DNA of 20,526 nt from a virus: positions 1-20,526 of IMG/VR virus record IMGVR_UViG_3300046462_000250; one strand, 5' to 3'. Below the pieces are notes generated by a model. That model had not been told where the DNA came from. It did not search any database and saw nothing but the letters and a program-made list of their open reading frames with translations. Shown in pieces: positions 516 to 20,390 of this stretch (positions are counted from its first letter, which is position 1; every line of letters starts with the position of its first letter). A program made the position numbers and the translations under genes.

Positions 516-1412
516 TTACGCTCCAGGAAGACAGTTCTGACCAAATGATGGTGGATTCTGATATCCTGGTGGACATGGACTAACGCATTGCTGTCCCGGC
601 AATGGCGCTCCAAATACTGGTCCATTAGCTATATAAGCACTCACACAAGTACAAGGATCACCAGGAGTTGGTCTAGTCAAATCATTTGGGCAAGGAGAAG
701 GACTTGGACTAGGGCTAGAGGTTGGGCTAGGTTTTGGGCTAGGCATTGGATTAGGACTAGATGTTGGACTAGGCATTGGTGATGGACTTGGTGATGGACT
801 TTCAATGGACCCAAATGAACCAGAACCGGAAGACATCATCATTTTCATCATCATATGTTTCATCATATTTTCATGATGCATACTCGTACCCATACCCATC
901 ATACCCATCATTCCCATCATTCCCATGCCCATATGAGACTTCTTGTGCTTCATATGTTTTTTCATATGAGACTTTTTCTTATGATGCATTCCAGGTCCAG
1001 GTCCACCTTTCATTTTCTTACCAGGACCACCCATTTTATGTTTCCCAGGACCACCACCACCCATTTTATGTTTCCCAGGACCACCACCACCCATTTTATG
1101 TTTCCCAGGACCAGAACCGCTAGAACCGACTGTTATTGATGTTACTGAGGTGGATAATTCTTTTGTGATTGTATTGTATACAGTTACTTTTAATATAAAT
1201 TTTCCAGTTTTATGATAAGTATGGCTTCCAATAATGTTATATGTGTTATTGCCAGTTTTTGCTGTAGTGGCCTGAGAAGAAAAAGTATCTCCCCATCCTA
1301 TACTAACAATATATTTGTCAACAGGCAGAGGTTTAGTATCTGAAAATGTGCCAATTAATTTATTTGACACATTCTTAGTTGTCACAAGGGGTTTTAGTGA
1401 AATAACAGTCAT
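516..1412 (-). CDS. PKD-like protein with Gly/His/Lys/Met-rich and Ser-Pro-rich repeats
   Basis: This 298-residue protein has four visible zones. Residues 1-97 look like a PKD/immunoglobulin-like domain (IGWGDTFS, then SHTYHKTGKF). Residues 101-130 are three decapeptides close to GPGKHKMGGG. Residues 141-193 are almost only Met, His, Lys and Gly, with about 21 Met, 9 His and 10 Lys in 53 positions. Residues 205-240 are Ser/Pro repeats with an occasional Met, Thr, Asn or Lys, and the end (241-298) carries six cysteines with CPPGY and two FG...C motifs. It follows the 700-residue PKD adhesin by 12 bp, so it is probably co-expressed with it and may be a surface-exposed tail component. The cationic Met/His zone could bind metal or acidic cell-surface polymers, but that is a guess from composition. 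I recognise no family beyond the PKD-like start. The start at 1412 has a CTAAATA element 9 nt upstream. Confidence 0.8.
   Translation of the reverse strand: MTVISLKPLVTTKNVSNKLIGTFSDTKPLPVDKYIVSIGWGDTFSSQATTAKTGNNTYNIIGSHTYHKTGKFILKVTVYNTITKELSTSVTSITVGSSGSGPGKHKMGGGGPGKHKMGGGGPGKHKMGGPGKKMKGGPGPGMHHKKKSHMKKHMKHKKSHMGMGMMGMMGMMGMGTSMHHENMMKHMMMKMMMSSGSGSFGSIESPSPSPSPMPSPTSSPNPMPSPKPSPTSSPSPSPSPCPNDLTRPTPGDPCTCVSAYIANGPVFGAPLPGQQCVSPCPPGYQNPPSFGQNCLPGA
693..800 (-). repeat. Ser-Pro coding repeat
   Basis: Short imperfect repeats encode the Ser/Pro tract at residues 205-240 of the 298-residue protein, with two PSPTSSP blocks set among SP and MP pairs. The tract probably acts as a stiff, extended spacer between the Met/His/Lys zone and the cysteine-rich end. 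Confidence 0.8.
1023..1112 (-). repeat. 30-bp in-frame tandem repeat, three copies
   Basis: Three consecutive 30-bp units encode GPGKHKMGGG, GPGKHKMGGG and GPGKHKMGGP. The units are nearly identical at the DNA level, which suggests recent duplication or slippage, and copy number could vary without shifting the frame. A decayed further unit (GKKMKGGPGPG) follows downstream. Confidence 0.9.
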
Positions 1413-1428: not shown

Positions 1429-3527
1429 TAAACTGTAGTAACAAATTGCTCACCAGAGGGTCTATTTGGCAATTTATGGAAAGTTCCATCAACTTCATTA
1501 AACTTCATAAAAGTCTTATTACTATAATCAAAACTTAAATAAGCAACCCTGTCACCATCACTTGTAGCCAATAAAGTATTAGAAACATTATCAAATCCTG
1601 ATACTGTAGAATCTTGAAGAGTTGAAAACAAAGGACTTCCAATTCCAGGCCCAAAAGATTCCCAAATATTAGCTGCGGTGTTATAAACAGAAACTCCACC
1701 ACTGTTATTGAAGAAATAAACTCCATTAGTCAATGTTACTAATTGGCCTTCTGATTTAGGGTTTCCCATTCCGCCTGGCAAATCTGGCAGTTTCATTATA
1801 GATTGAATAGGGTTATTAAAAACTCCATCAGTTCTATAAAAACTTCTTAATCTAAAAAATGATCCAGTATTATCATTGCGAACAATGTAACCAGTATTAT
1901 CTTTCCAACATGAACGATATACAGAAAATTCTCCATCAGTGCCATCACCGACATTAGACTTCAATTCATCTGCTCCATTATCAAAAGTACTCAATGTTTC
2001 ACTTGACAATGCAAAACTTCCCAAACTAACAGATTGTGTTTCAACGTTAGTTAAGTCTATAGTTGGATTTTGATTTCCAAACAAGAAATAAACATTATCA
2101 GGAGAGTTCAAAGATACCCAATTCCAAGACCTATTCATTGTATCTACAGGCAAAGTAGAATACACATCAGCAAATCCATCAAACTCCATCAATCTCACAC
2201 TACTATTATCTTCTTGCCAATACATAACACCAGAACCATGATTGCCAGATGAAGTGGCATTTCTTTGTGTGAATCCATTATTTCTGCGGAACTCACGAAT
2301 TTGCTGTGCGGAATTAGGTAAACTATTCAAAAAAGTATAATCTCTTTTAACTGAAAGTGTGTTATAAGTTTTTGTTTTAAACACTTCGCTAATAAGACCA
2401 AATTCATAAGTTGAAATATTTTTTGTTATAGCTGTATTTGATGTTGGAGAATCAAATATTGAAAGCCAAAGATTGTTCTTTTCAATAATATCTAGAACTT
2501 TTGGAAAGGTTGTAATTCTATAAGACCCAAGTTCTGTATCTACACGTAGCTGAACATCATATAATCCACCAATACTAAACTGTGCATCCGTTGTTGATGA
2601 ATTTTGATGAAATAAATCATCATTTATAACCCAAGTGTATTCAACTATGGGATCACCAACCTGAACACCAGAAGAAATTACATCAATTTCGATAGGCACA
2701 TTTATTTTTGATCTAATAACACCACCACTTACTATTTGTATTGGACTAGCATTAAAGTCAATAGTTGCCTCATTCGGTGCACCTGTTCTTACTGTAATAA
2801 GATCAGTTATTGTAATTTCATTAGTTCCAAATGGATTAGTGGCTGTTAAAGTAATGCTATATGTGCCAGGAGTAGTATAAATATGCGAAACACTGCCGTC
2901 TGGTGGTGGACTTGTACCTTCTGCTTGTCCAGGCACGTAAGGAAAGATAAGTGTATCTGTATCAGTATCTCCAAAATCCCATTCGTACTTATTTGGCGCA
3001 CGAACACTTAAATCTTGTATATTGACAGTTAATGGTGCAGCGCCAACCTTTTTATCTACAGAAAACCAAGCCTTTGGCCTTAAAACCAAACTCCGTAAGT
3101 AATTAATTCTAGCTTCCATAGTACCAGTTTTGGGTTTAACTGCTACTTCTCCTCTTTTCCCCGCCATGTGTTCAATCTGAATTAAAGCATCTTTGAGAGA
3201 ATCATGATGTTCTGCAACAACATTCATGGTAATATGTGTAAACAATTTTGGCTTAGCAACGTCAGTAAAACCACTATTTAAAACCAAACCTGTAAAGCCA
3301 GTTTTAGTTAATCCACTATACGTAAAAGAGATTGCCCTTTTGTCAATAGTGCTACATTGTTCTGTTAATGTAATAATCCCAGTAGGCGGGAAAGAAAGCG
3401 TAGGATCGCCATTCACTACAATGGAAGTATCCCCAGGCGAATAATCTTCTGCTAATGTTAATCTTAGACCATCATGTACTAAAAAAAGGTTTGTATCATC
3501 ATCAAAATTTACTGGATAATTGCTCAT
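1425..3527 (-). CDS. PKD-domain adhesin with C-terminal propeller-like domain
   Basis: A 700-residue predicted virion adhesin. Residues 1-148 carry the shared N-terminal module (TNLFLVHDG, a Gly-Phe-Thr-Gly segment near 77-80, VVAEHHDSLKDA near 103-114). Residues 151-248 form a recognisable PKD domain with YEWDFGDTDTD and HIYTTPGTYSITLTATN. Residues 255-348 look like a divergent second PKD/Ig-like domain (YTWVINDD, GGLYDVQLRVD). The remaining part, to 700, is beta-rich with repeated aromatic strands such as GGVSVYNTAANIWESFG, which recalls kelch-type beta-propellers. PKD domains are common in surface-binding proteins, and the likely role is host-surface binding with the C-terminal domain as receptor or glycan binder. 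The start has a TAGGA ribosome-binding site and directly follows the stop of the 325-residue paralogue, which implies coupled translation. The propeller assignment is inference. Confidence 0.85.
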   Translation of the reverse strand: MSNYPVNFDDDTNLFLVHDGLRLTLAEDYSPGDTSIVVNGDPTLSFPPTGIITLTEQCSTIDKRAISFTYSGLTKTGFTGLVLNSGFTDVAKPKLFTHITMNVVAEHHDSLKDALIQIEHMAGKRGEVAVKPKTGTMEARINYLRSLVLRPKAWFSVDKKVGAAPLTVNIQDLSVRAPNKYEWDFGDTDTDTLIFPYVPGQAEGTSPPPDGSVSHIYTTPGTYSITLTATNPFGTNEITITDLITVRTGAPNEATIDFNASPIQIVSGGVIRSKINVPIEIDVISSGVQVGDPIVEYTWVINDDLFHQNSSTTDAQFSIGGLYDVQLRVDTELGSYRITTFPKVLDIIEKNNLWLSIFDSPTSNTAITKNISTYEFGLISEVFKTKTYNTLSVKRDYTFLNSLPNSAQQIREFRRNNGFTQRNATSSGNHGSGVMYWQEDNSSVRLMEFDGFADVYSTLPVDTMNRSWNWVSLNSPDNVYFLFGNQNPTIDLTNVETQSVSLGSFALSSETLSTFDNGADELKSNVGDGTDGEFSVYRSCWKDNTGYIVRNDNTGSFFRLRSFYRTDGVFNNPIQSIMKLPDLPGGMGNPKSEGQLVTLTNGVYFFNNSGGVSVYNTAANIWESFGPGIGSPLFSTLQDSTVSGFDNVSNTLLATSDGDRVAYLSFDYSNKTFMKFNEVDGTFHKLPNRPSGEQFVTTVY

Positions 3528-4505
3528 TTAATTTCCTACTATAATTGGTTCTGTGGCAAGGACTACATTTTTTGTTTCATCAGAAAAGACTAATAATAAA
3601 GATGGATTATATGTTCCTGCTACCGTATATTGATGCTCTGCTGTATGTTCATTTGGGTCAGTTATTGAAGTAGTTGTTCCATCATCCCACACCCAATACC
3701 TACTAGCTATACTGCCGTCTGATTGGTCTATAAAAGTGAAAGTATCACTTACTGTACCAGATATCGGAGTTGTATAAAAAAATGCAGGAGCATACTGCAA
3801 TCCAATCTTAATGTAATCTTTCTTAGTTGCAATGCCCTGACCATTCAAACTTGTAATTACTGTTAACGAAACGCTATAATTACCACTTGCTTCATATGTA
3901 TGTGTTGGAGCAAAATCTTGTGAAGTTGAACCGTCTCCAAAATCCCAAAAATATCTAATAGCAGGACTTTCTGTAAAATTTTGAAAACTTACAACGTGTG
4001 GAGCAACTCCCGTTCTTGGGTCTGCTCTGAATACTGGCCTTGGTGATAAAAATCTAGTTTCAAGCGCTGTTAAAATACCATTTAATGATTTAGGGTCTGG
4101 GTTCTTAATTAACCCTAGATTTTTTTCAATATTAATTGATGCATCTTTAATAGCATTGTGTGGTTCTGCAAAGACAGCACCATAAACAGGAGTATTAATT
4201 GGCCAAGTGTTCTGTCTTGATCCAGCAAAACCTCTCTTTAAACCAGTAAAACCATTTGCAGTTTTAATTGAATAATATATCTGTTCTGTACCTATTAAGA
4301 TCAAACCTTGATCTGGAAATGAACTTGTATCTTCTACAACAAAAATTGGGGAATTATAGCTTGTACTTTGAGTTGTTATAGTTTGGGCATTGTTAGATGC
4401 CGTATATAACTGTTCATGCGTATCTTTAGCTACAGGATATATGCTTAAATCACCAGCTAAATATCCTTTGTCTGTTGACGCAATTCTGTCTATAAATTTA
4501 GCCAT
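3528..4505 (-). CDS. Two-PKD-domain virion protein sharing the N-terminal module
   Basis: A 325-residue predicted structural protein. Residues about 30-150 hold the module shared with its two downstream neighbours: a short beta segment (FPDQGLILIGTEQIYY), FTGLKRGFAG, then FAEPHNAIKDA and an NIEKNLG segment. Residues 155-236 are a clear PKD domain (GVAPHVVSFQN, YFWDFGDGST, HTYEASGNYSVSLTV). Residues 238-325 are a second PKD-like domain (RYWVWDDGTTTS, HQYTVAGTYN). The protein ends directly after it, so unlike the 700-residue paralogue it has no large C-terminal domain and may serve as a spacer or short decoration. The ATG has a good GAGGT Shine-Dalgarno sequence that overlaps the stop of the upstream gene, 3 bp away. 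Confidence 0.85.
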   Translation of the reverse strand: MAKFIDRIASTDKGYLAGDLSIYPVAKDTHEQLYTASNNAQTITTQSTSYNSPIFVVEDTSSFPDQGLILIGTEQIYYSIKTANGFTGLKRGFAGSRQNTWPINTPVYGAVFAEPHNAIKDASINIEKNLGLIKNPDPKSLNGILTALETRFLSPRPVFRADPRTGVAPHVVSFQNFTESPAIRYFWDFGDGSTSQDFAPTHTYEASGNYSVSLTVITSLNGQGIATKKDYIKIGLQYAPAFFYTTPISGTVSDTFTFIDQSDGSIASRYWVWDDGTTTSITDPNEHTAEHQYTVAGTYNPSLLLVFSDETKNVVLATEPIIVGN

Positions 4506-4508
4506 AAT

Positions 4509-5045
4509 TTACCTCGGATAAGGATAACTTTGTTTATAATACCAAGCGCCATTTGGATTTCCATATTTGTCATATTCTTCATCTCCAAAATTCTGCCATT
4601 CTAGAAATAAACTATGGTCTATATTTTGGTCATCAACGCTCTTCCAAATCTTACCATCCCACCATTGAATACTTTGTGGCTGAATAATTCTATTTGTATG
4701 ATAATCATCCCTGCCAATATCGCTTTCTTTATCTATTTGCCATCTGTCTGTTGTTGGTCGCCTATTGAATCTAAATCTTAATATAATAGGAATTAAACCA
4801 TCTTCTAAAACATTATCAGAAGTATCATTTCCTACCATCTCTAATTTAGAGACCCAAAATCTTGCATTATCCAAAGTGTGTGAGAAAAACGTCTTTCCAA
4901 ATGAATGTCTTGCATAAGCGTAAAAATTTGCCCCTTCGCTATCTTTCCAAGATAAACCATACTCTGCAATACCCTCTAGATTCTTAAAAAAAGTAGCATG
5001 GTAAACAATATCAGTTCTAGCTTCTAACCATAATTTAAATAACAT
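4509..5045 (-). CDS. Candidate ADP-ribosyltransferase-fold protein with T4-like capsid-targeting leader
   Basis: A 178-residue protein. After a short leader (MLFKLWLEAR) it continues IVYHATFFKNLEGIAEYGLSW, then YARHSFGKTFFSHTLDNARFW and IPIILRFRF. The order YHxT, a helix ending in a GL turn, an aromatic strand, a helix and a hydrophobic strand matches the general layout of ART-fold proteins (ADP-ribosyltransferases and Tpt1/KptA-like enzymes). I cannot assign a catalytic glutamate, so activity is unproven. The leader resembles the T4 internal-protein capsid-targeting sequence, and T4 packages its own ART, Alt, in the head. By analogy this could be an injected host-modifying enzyme. It could also be an inactive structural protein. 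The start has an ATAAATA element 4 nt upstream and no clear Shine-Dalgarno sequence. It is 3 bp from each neighbour. Confidence 0.5.
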   Translation of the reverse strand: MLFKLWLEARTDIVYHATFFKNLEGIAEYGLSWKDSEGANFYAYARHSFGKTFFSHTLDNARFWVSKLEMVGNDTSDNVLEDGLIPIILRFRFNRRPTTDRWQIDKESDIGRDDYHTNRIIQPQSIQWWDGKIWKSVDDQNIDHSLFLEWQNFGDEEYDKYGNPNGAWYYKQSYPYPR

Positions 5046-6884: not shown

Positions 6885-7157
6885 TCATAAATCTTCTAGT
6901 GGATAGTAATATTCGTCTTTAAAGGCTAATTCAGCACCCATTAAGAATCTTCTAATCATACCCCAATCTTCATTAGATAAAGTGCTTCCTGGTTGTGTTG
7001 ATTTCAATTCTTTTACACTATGACTTGCTAAATCTTGAATAGTTATTATCCTTAGACGATTACACATTTTCCTGGCTCTTACGCTAGGTATGTCTGAACA
7101 CAAAGTATTTGGATTTGGATATCTTTCACCTTCGATATATTGTTTGAATGCGCCCAT
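6885..7157 (-). CDS. Small protein resembling RNA polymerase alpha C-terminal domain, with leader motif
   Basis: A 90-residue protein. Residues about 23-72 resemble the helix-hairpin-helix fold of bacterial RNA polymerase alpha-CTD. SVRARKMCNRLRIITIQDL aligns without gaps to the E. coli VRSANCLKAEAIHYIGDL segment, sharing VR, two Ile and DL, and VKELKSTQPG follows with the expected EL. The DNA-contacting Arg equivalent to R265 is kept, while the Asn equivalent to N268 is Lys. It begins MGAFKQYIEGE, which matches the leader motif shared with other genes here and resembles the T4 capsid-targeting leader. It could bind DNA or mimic part of host polymerase, but a plain structural HhH protein is also possible. 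It sits 15 bp downstream of the fibre-like gene at 7173..7697. The start has an ATAAATA element 4 nt upstream. Confidence 0.55.
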   Translation of the reverse strand: MGAFKQYIEGERYPNPNTLCSDIPSVRARKMCNRLRIITIQDLASHSVKELKSTQPGSTLSNEDWGMIRRFLMGAELAFKDEYYYPLEDL

Positions 7158-7728: not shown

Positions 7729-8436
7729 ATGAAGAGCTTCAAAAAATTCCTTGAAGTAGCAACACTTACAAGAAACCGATCTACTATTAGTGAACCACCA
7801 ATAGATAATGACGAAAATGGTGATGACTGTAATTTTGACAGGCAAACCATTGAACGTTGGATTTCTCAAGTAGGTTGGAAGGAAGTAGGTGGCGATTTTA
7901 CCGAAACAATCATGCAAAAAGGCCATCCATTAAAAAGTACCAGACTAGAATATGTAACACCAACTCAAGGTGGATACAGAGGTCTAGTAGAAGCAACTGC
8001 CAGATGGATGTTAGGACCAAAATGGGTTTCTCCTGGTATCTTTGAATCTTTTCTTGCCGATTTCAAAAGTCAAATACTAAAAAGTTCTCTATGGAAAACT
8101 TTAGATGTTAAATCCATCTGTATTAATGATGAAGAATTTTTTTGGAATCTATTAGATGCTTTTGCTAGTGCCAAATCCAAAATGGTAGAAATATGGAGAT
8201 GGGAAAAAGGCCACAACCCAGAAGATGTTAAACTAGGCTTAGAAGACAACATAGAACAATACTTCAAGGGTGTAAACATTAATATAAAAGATATTCAACT
8301 AGGCAAGCCAAAAGATCAACATATGGGTGATAAAAGTCATGGTGGTATGGCAACTAGTGGTAGAAATCCTTCATTGGGAGCTTATGTTAGTGTAAAAAGC
8401 GTTATGTGGTTTCCTTTTAAAATTACTGTTCAGTAA
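7729..8436 (+). CDS. Plus-strand protein of unknown function with T4 internal-protein-like leader
   Basis: A 235-residue protein that I do not recognise. The start MKSFKKFLEVA resembles the T4 internal-protein leader MKTYQEFIAEA position by position. The rest is soluble and Trp-rich: RWISQVGWKEVGGDF, LVEATARWMLGPKWVSPGIF, EEFFWNLLDAFASAK, VEIWRWEKGHN, and an end with SHGGMATSGRNPSLGAYVSV. No membrane segment or catalytic motif is visible. It is the only plus-strand gene inside the minus-strand late series: it converges on the 986-residue wedge gene with a 14-bp overlap and diverges from the gene at 7697 by 31 bp. That position and the leader suggest an inserted accessory gene, perhaps a capsid-packaged, injected protein. 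CTAAATA lies 5 nt before the ATG. Confidence 0.7.
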   Translation: MKSFKKFLEVATLTRNRSTISEPPIDNDENGDDCNFDRQTIERWISQVGWKEVGGDFTETIMQKGHPLKSTRLEYVTPTQGGYRGLVEATARWMLGPKWVSPGIFESFLADFKSQILKSSLWKTLDVKSICINDEEFFWNLLDAFASAKSKMVEIWRWEKGHNPEDVKLGLEDNIEQYFKGVNINIKDIQLGKPKDQHMGDKSHGGMATSGRNPSLGAYVSVKSVMWFPFKITVQ

Positions 8437-19112: not shown

Positions 19113-20390
19113 ATGAGAAACAACTGGCAATATTGGATAGAAGCAGAAAATGCAGCGGGAAATCAAGCACCAGCTAGTGATCCTAATGCACCAGGACAAG
19201 GTGGCTCCATACCTCCACAACAACCCCCACAACAGCCACAACCAGGAGATGATCCTTCTGCTGCCGCTCAAGGTCCAGAAGATGATGCTAATAATGATCC
19301 AGAAAGTATAGAAACACCAGAACAAAATGCAAATAGTGATTATGAATCTTGGAAACACGATTTCATGGAAGCCGCAATTAAATGTGATAATGAAGAACTA
19401 GTTACCCTACTAAAATCAATCCGTGATCGTGATTTAGAAGCCTCACAACGCAAATTTGTTGAAGATAACATTCAAATCTTCATGTTTCGTCGTGATGATA
19501 ATGTTTTTAAAGCAAGTACACAAATTCGTAATGCAGTAAAGAAAGACTTAGATAGAACTAATCCAGGTACAACTCTAATGCAACACTTTAATCAAGCAAT
19601 AGAACAACAACCATTGCTATATCAAGGTATTATTAAGTTATCCGGTACTTTTGGCTGGAAACAAGACCTTCACCGTAAATGGTTGGCAGCTTTCTTTGGT
19701 GCAGTTCAAATAGGTGCAGGTTCTACAAATAAAGACCTTGTTTATTGTGGTGAAGATTATGACGTTAATATTTCAACAAGATTCACAACTCAGTTTGGAG
19801 AAATTAATCTTGGCAAATGGAGTTTGGTTTCTGATGATCCAACTAAGTATCTAAAACCAAATGAACGTGAAAGCCTATCAGAAGGAAGCCCAGAAGAAAA
19901 ACAGGTTCTAAGAAGAAAAATCATTCTGAAATCCATTGCAGAACATTATCGTAAACGTGCTTTCTTGATTCATGTATGCACCACAGATGGAACAATTTAT
20001 TCTATAGGATGGGATATTGGAAACAGCTTAATGGATGCTTATAAAGAAGGAAAAGTGGTTGTTCGTGGTAGGGAGAACGAAAACAAAGAAGTTCTAATTG
20101 GTGATGATGGAGCAATTATTCCAGTTATTGATTATAGTCTTTTCTTCGTTAAAGAAACTGGCGAAGTTGATGATGATGGAAGACCAGAAACAGAAGAAGT
20201 TCCTTTTATAGAACGTCGTGATAGTGTTCTATACTTGATTGCCGATCTAGATACACTAAAGATGGCTAGCGCAGGAATGAGTGGAATCTTCTTTAATTCC
20301 GTACCATATTCCGGCAATCCAAGTGAAATTAAGCAGTTACAGAGAAGTGTTCCTGGTCTTTATGAAATTATTGCGAAGCAAGTTGTTTAA
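19113..20390 (+). CDS. 425-residue protein of unknown function with leader motif and disordered linker
   Basis: I do not recognise this 425-residue protein. Residues 1-12 (MRNNWQYWIEAE) match the leader motif shared by other genes here. Residues about 13-78 are a disordered, acidic Pro/Gln/Ala/Asn-rich linker (for example PPQQPPQQPQPGDD). Residues 79-425 are a globular alpha/beta region with no catalytic motif that I can name. It includes DNEELVTLLKSIRDRDLEASQ, HFNQAIEQQPLLYQGIIK, SGTFGWKQDLHRKW, a beta region near VYCGEDYDVNIS, and an end with ADLDTLKMASAGMSGIFFNS. The leader-linker-domain order suggests a virion or capsid-packaged protein. It is 4 bp from the upstream gene and seems to share its transcription. 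An ATAAATA element lies 5 nt before the start. Confidence 0.7.
   Translation: MRNNWQYWIEAENAAGNQAPASDPNAPGQGGSIPPQQPPQQPQPGDDPSAAAQGPEDDANNDPESIETPEQNANSDYESWKHDFMEAAIKCDNEELVTLLKSIRDRDLEASQRKFVEDNIQIFMFRRDDNVFKASTQIRNAVKKDLDRTNPGTTLMQHFNQAIEQQPLLYQGIIKLSGTFGWKQDLHRKWLAAFFGAVQIGAGSTNKDLVYCGEDYDVNISTRFTTQFGEINLGKWSLVSDDPTKYLKPNERESLSEGSPEEKQVLRRKIILKSIAEHYRKRAFLIHVCTTDGTIYSIGWDIGNSLMDAYKEGKVVVRGRENENKEVLIGDDGAIIPVIDYSLFFVKETGEVDDDGRPETEEVPFIERRDSVLYLIADLDTLKMASAGMSGIFFNSVPYSGNPSEIKQLQRSVPGLYEIIAKQVV

What the first reader, a model, noticed from the sequence alone, without database searches (positions are those of the whole stretch)
4509..5045. ADP-ribosyltransferase-fold candidate with an Alt-like packaging arrangement
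The YHAT strand, the helix ending in a GL turn, the aromatic/Ser segment and the IPIILRF strand follow the ART-fold order. It carries the leader motif and lies in a late region, as would be expected for a virion-packaged ART such as T4 Alt. At 178 residues it is much smaller than Alt. No catalytic Glu is obvious, so it may be Tpt1-like or inactive.
Basis: partly seen in the sequence, partly recalled or inferred. Interest (0 to 1): 0.6.

Follow-up and report, generated by a model that had tools for sequence, protein, structure and literature searches.

The report
Probable virion-packaged ADP-ribosyltransferase-fold phage protein
A relative of huge phages carries, inside its tail-gene operon, a small protein with the ADP-ribosyltransferase fold behind a short tag like the one phage T4 uses to load proteins into its head, so it is probably injected with the DNA to act on the host, although its active site is unusual and its activity is untested.

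Summary
The 178-aa ORF alone has no database hit, but a DNA-pattern search (YHAT-x4-L-x2-I-x3-GL) found a large viral family. Sequence downstream of that motif scores the query at E 3.6e-8 (11-member profile) and 1.1e-6 (all 76 members); the best of 2,888 decoys reached 0.007 and 0.014. An AlphaFold model from 32 relatives (pLDDT 73, pTM 0.70) matches almost only ADP-ribosyltransferase (ART) folds in the PDB.

The leader MLFKLWLEA matches the key spacing of T4's capsid-targeting sequence (MKTYQEFIAEA), with Glu one residue nearer. The pattern is enriched at N-termini in this phage clade (25 versus 2.3 expected in a 511-kb relative) and on YHAT proteins (7/56 versus 10/1569 neighbours). The gene sits between two genes that are adjacent in its syntenic relatives.

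It is not Alt-family and not a Tpt1 enzyme. H16 is present, the usual Tyr is Phe53, the usual Glu column holds Asp114, and R90 and W134 are conserved in its subfamily. Best reading: a head-packaged, injected ART-fold effector. Packaging and catalysis are inferred. The kind is known; the variant appears new.

The parts
4509..5045 (-). ART-fold protein gene, 178 aa
5022..5045 (-). leader residues 1-8 (MLFKLWLE), capsid-targeting-like; possible prohead-protease cut after Glu8
   Evidence: pattern enriched at N-termini; T4 ipII/ipIII comparison; predicted helix 2-9
4953..5003 (-). YHAT-x4-L-x2-I-x3-GL motif, residues 15-31 (H16 = ART first-strand His)
4881..4892 (-). strand TFFS, residues 52-55; F53 replaces the Tyr of H-Y-[EDQ] ARTs
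4767..4790 (-). strand PIILRFRF, residues 86-93; R90 invariant in the subfamily (18/18)
4704..4709 (-). Asp113-Asp114, candidate catalytic acid (D114 in the Glu column) at the start of strand 114-117
4644..4646 (-). Trp134, conserved in 17 of 18 subfamily members
4548..4583 (-). C-terminal tail DEEYDKYGNPNG (residues 155-166), shared with L271
5049..5561 (-). upstream conserved coiled-coil gene; in relatives it lies next to the PKD gene at 3528-4505
3528..4505 (-). downstream conserved PKD-domain gene
6885..7157 (-). second leader-bearing gene (MGAFKQYIEGE), no counterpart found in the syntenic relatives
7729..8436 (+). third leader-bearing gene (MKSFKKFLEVA), no counterpart found in the syntenic relatives
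19113..20390 (+). leader-bearing gene (MRNNWQYWIEAE), conserved in relative L004 (64%)

Best explanation
This is a small ADP-ribosyltransferase-fold effector of a virus related to huge phages. Made late, it is taken into the assembling head by its N-terminal leader (aromatic at 3, aromatic at 6, aliphatic at 7, Glu at 8). The leader may be trimmed after Glu8 by a T4-type prohead protease. The protein is then injected with the DNA; in the cell the ART domain binds NAD+ at the site around His16 and Phe53 and transfers ADP-ribose, with Asp114 as candidate acid, to a host or defence target. Shown here: gene, family, fold, leader enrichment, clean position between two otherwise adjacent genes. Inferred: packaging, trimming, NAD+ use, target.
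For: Fold: sequence downstream of the search motif scores the query at E 3.6e-8 with an 11-member profile and 1.1e-6 with all 76 members, best of 2,888 decoys 0.007 and 0.014. Profile A1 finds Tpt1, PARP10 and DarT1 in the PDB. The model (pLDDT 72.8, pTM 0.70) matches ARTs almost exclusively, Z up to 7.7. Leader: 25 versus 2.34 expected in the 511-kb relative G009 (Poisson P 1e-17); 7/56 YHAT proteins versus 10/1569 neighbours (6/55 without the query, P 7e-6). T4 ipII/ipIII begin MKTYQEFIAEA; residues 4 and 7 of that leader direct targeting, 8 and 10 processing (PMC9026906). A T4-type prohead protease (Pfam S77) is present in three of five related records, among them the close relative G002. 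In G009 another leader protein (L287:8778-9605) has an ART domain (Pfam PARP 1.8e-4; hhalign 95.8%). Leader proteins of the clade also include a SAM lyase and methyltransferases.
Against: The canonical Tyr is Phe and the canonical Glu is Asp; in the subfamily the acid column is D/E in only 10 of 18, and the nearest relative lacks it. That relative (L271) has no leader. The leader has Glu one residue nearer than in T4 and so departs from the T4 processing site. No S77 protease was found in the 105-kb record itself, which is a fragment. The gene lies among tail genes, not head genes. No tool here tests packaging or catalysis.
Confidence: 0.6

Rival explanations
1. ART fold without ADP-ribosyltransferase activity: a packaged binding protein or inhibitor that kept the fold but lost the chemistry, working like T4 IPI, which blocks a restriction enzyme by binding.
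For: Tyr replaced by Phe; acid column loose in the subfamily and absent in L271; new conserved R90 and W134. T-even internal proteins are diverse defence inhibitors sharing only the targeting leader (PMC3012670).
Against: The His is invariant in all 32 aligned rows (although rows were chosen by that motif). Asp114 lies at the start of a core strand, where ART catalytic acids usually sit, and Arr uses Asp (from memory).
Confidence: 0.25
2. ART enzyme made late but not packaged: the leader match is fortuitous or is a tail-assembly signal, and the enzyme acts inside the infected cell or rides on the tail.
For: The gene is inside a tail/baseplate operon; L271 lacks the leader.
Against: Leader enrichment at N-termini in this and related phages and its association with YHAT proteins of other phages.
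Confidence: 0.12
3. Tpt1/KptA-type RNA 2'-phosphotransferase used in RNA repair.
For: Tpt1 structures are among the best profile and fold matches.
Against: Matches cover only the ART lobe (chain residues about 89-182); there is no room for the N-terminal lobe since YHAT starts at residue 15. KptA-like ORFs with both lobes exist separately in G009 and G011 (L303, L309).
Confidence: 0.03

Closest known systems
Caulobacter phage Cr30 hypothetical protein AGS80945.1
   Same: T4-type leader (MKTFKQFFNES) directly before a small YHGT ART-like domain
   Different: 106 aa; reached through the canonical H-Y-E branch (query L102), not this subfamily; Tyr and Glu appear to be in place; uncharacterised
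T4 internal proteins IPII/IPIII (capsid-targeting sequence)
   Same: N-terminal aromatic-x-x-aromatic-aliphatic then Glu; a short leader on unrelated cargo
   Different: Glu is one residue nearer here; the T4 cargo is not ART
T4 Alt
   Same: ADP-ribosyltransferase that travels in the head and has a 7-residue N-terminal propeptide (PMC9026906)
   Different: Alt is 682 aa and of the R-S-E clade (PMC9503650); no profile similarity
Tpt1/KptA RNA 2'-phosphotransferase
   Same: YHGT...I...GL and ART-lobe fold
   Different: N-terminal lobe absent here
L271 domain 2 (IMGVR_UViG_3300025133_000268)
   Same: 34% identity, same C-terminal tail
   Different: second of two tandem YHAT domains in a 369-aa protein, no leader

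Membership tests
ADP-ribosyltransferase superfamily | split beta-sheet ART core fold | tested here: met
   Model pLDDT 72.8; Foldseek PDB ranks 1-47 are almost all ARTs or ART-fold relatives; VIA Z up to 7.7 over about 85-130 residues. Z is moderate and the model used related sequences.
ADP-ribosyltransferase superfamily | first-strand His or Arg | tested here: met
   H16 in YHAT, invariant in A5
ADP-ribosyltransferase superfamily, H-Y-[EDQ] clade | Tyr on the second core strand | tested here: not met
   F53 here; Tyr in 14/14 of the canonical branch, 4/18 of the subfamily
ADP-ribosyltransferase superfamily, H-Y-[EDQ] clade | Glu/Asp/Gln at the last core strand | tested here: inconclusive
   D114 aligns with it, but the column is D/E in only 10/18 of the subfamily and the alignment there is uncertain
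ADP-ribosyltransferase superfamily | NAD+ binding and transfer | not testable with these tools
   needs protein
T4 Alt/VIP2 family | R-S-E triad and sequence similarity | tested here: not met
   H-F-D at the sites; hhalign against T4 Alt probability 0.3%
Tpt1/KptA | N-terminal lobe before the ART lobe | tested here: not met
   only 14 residues precede YHAT; Tpt1 matches start at chain residue about 89
T4-type capsid-targeting leader | N-terminal aromatic i, aromatic i+3, aliphatic i+4, then Glu | tested here: met
   F3, W6, L7, E8 against Y4, F7, I8, E10 in ipII/ipIII; Glu one residue nearer
T4-type capsid-targeting leader | cleavage by an S77 prohead protease of the same phage | tested here: inconclusive
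   S77 found in G002, G009 and G011, not in the 105-kb fragment; cleavage itself not testable

The most novel reading that the evidence does not exclude
The subfamily (query, L271, L201, L219, L236, L155, L218, L210, L175 and others) is a separate ART-fold group in which the H-Y-E triad is relaxed and an invariant Arg (R90) and a conserved Trp (W134) have taken over, with different chemistry or acceptor; and in this phage clade the leader marks a whole set of head-packaged counter-defence enzymes (ART, SAM lyase, DNA methyltransferases) that can be read from sequence.
Probability: 0.3. Interest if true: 0.75.

Novelty: new variant of a known kind. Interest (0 to 1): 0.5.

Why it matters
Packaged phage ARTs are a known theme (PMC9503650 finds about 44% of phage ARTs in contexts that suggest packaging). 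Here a short, recognisable leader would let candidate injected effectors of huge phages be listed from sequence alone, and Caulobacter phage Cr30 offers a cultured phage with the same leader-ART arrangement in which it can be tested.

Tried and rejected
Pfam, PHROGs, NCBIfam, PDB-sequence, phage and plasmid searches with the single protein gave nothing of use. The single-sequence AlphaFold model was useless (pLDDT 33). Two scans of bacterial and archaeal genomes found no relative. Relatives of the tail module carry no leader-bearing accessory genes there (0 of 52), so the idea of a fixed cargo slot was dropped. Alt-family membership was rejected. No paper joining huge phages and capsid-targeting leaders was found in the library.

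Full report
Observation. The ORF at 4509-5045 (-) is 178 aa and lies with 3-nt gaps between same-strand neighbours. An identical copy lies in a 105.7-kb viral record that matches the whole window at essentially 100%.

Family. Alone the protein matches nothing. A DNA pattern for YHAT-x4-[LIM]-x2-I-x3-G-[LF] was scanned over viral contigs: the correct spacing reached the limit of 120 rows, while an accidentally mis-spaced version of the same composition gave 7. To avoid circularity only sequence downstream of the motif was then compared. The query scored E 3.6e-8 with an 11-member profile and 1.1e-6 with all 76 members; the best of 2,888 random or shuffled sequences reached 0.007 and 0.014. The 18-member canonical H-Y-E branch alone did not find it, so it belongs to a separate branch. 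The nearest relative, L271, has 34% identity over 167 alignment columns, including the tail DEEYDxYGxPxG, and is the second of two tandem YHAT domains. In the tree the query groups with L271 and L218 at 92/96 support.

Fold. A profile of 12 relatives finds Tpt1 (4e-4), PARP10 (0.013) and DarT1 (0.46) in the PDB; a 39-member profile that includes KptA-like rows finds Tpt1 at 8e-9. AlphaFold with 32 relatives gave pLDDT 72.8 and pTM 0.70. Foldseek against the PDB returned almost only ART folds in its first 47 rows, best E 0.015, and VIA-align Z up to 7.7. These scores are moderate, but the list is uniform. In the viral library the best match is an uncultured phage protein at 4.5e-7.

Active site. 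H16 is invariant. The Tyr of the canonical branch (14/14) is F53 here. The Glu column (12/14 Glu in the canonical branch) holds D114 here, but only 10 of 18 subfamily members have D or E there, and L271 does not. R90 (18/18) and W134 (17/18) are subfamily features. The protein is therefore ART-fold with a non-canonical site. Activity is possible but unproven.

Leader. T4 ipII and ipIII begin MKTYQEFIAEA; residues 4 and 7 direct targeting and 8 and 10 processing (PMC9026906). The query has F3, W6, L7, E8. The pattern is enriched at N-termini in this phage (6, or 7 with this gene, versus 0.65), in G006 (9 versus 1.8), in G009 (25 versus 2.3) and in G011 (9 versus 1.8). Of 56 YHAT proteins with the domain near the N-terminus 7 have it, against 10 of 1,569 neighbouring genes (without the query P 7e-6). 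Leader-bearing proteins of this clade include a SAM lyase, methyltransferases and another ART. Cr30, a cultured phage, has a leader followed directly by an ART-like domain. Three of five related records carry an S77 prohead protease.

Context. The tail module is syntenic with ten relatives. In each relative where both neighbours are held, the coiled-coil and PKD genes that flank the query lie next to each other without it. Two other window genes with no counterpart found in those relatives, 6885-7157 and 7729-8436, also bear the leader. The relatives' own accessory genes in this module lack it, so this is a property of this phage and not a general cargo slot.

Conclusion. Injected ART-fold effector, confidence 0.6. 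ART fold alone about 0.95; packaging about 0.7; catalysis about 0.5 (my estimates). The idea of packaged phage ARTs is published (PMC9503650); the subfamily, the leader pairing in this clade and the altered site appear new within what was searched.

Noticed in passing
L087:6179-7531 (+); L089:7979-9433 (+); L066:12575-13168 (+): Leader-bearing proteins with a SAM lyase domain (PF23780, 6.8e-12), a methyltransferase domain and an MT-A70 methyltransferase domain: possible packaged anti-restriction set.
   Followed up: partly
G009 (511-kb record), L284-L303: 25 leader-bearing proteins against 2.3 expected, most without Pfam match, including tandem paralogs at L291:13771-16607.
   Followed up: partly
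L101:1498-1920 (-), 458-kb contig: Leader MKSFNEWMEE on a rifampin ADP-ribosyltransferase-like protein (Arr-ms, 7.8e-9).
   Followed up: no
L198:497-1054 and 1456-1968 (+): Two nearby genes with nearly identical leaders followed by RDAPLYHA, one of them a YHAT protein.
   Followed up: no
L271:3094-4203 (-): A 369-aa protein with two tandem YHAT domains.
   Followed up: partly
window 516-1412 (-): Low-complexity protein with GPGKHKMGG repeats, a Met/His/Lys-rich stretch and a PSPSP region.
   Followed up: no
window 7729-8436 (+): Leader-bearing 235-aa ORF on the opposite strand inside the tail operon, no Pfam or significant PHROG match.
   Followed up: no
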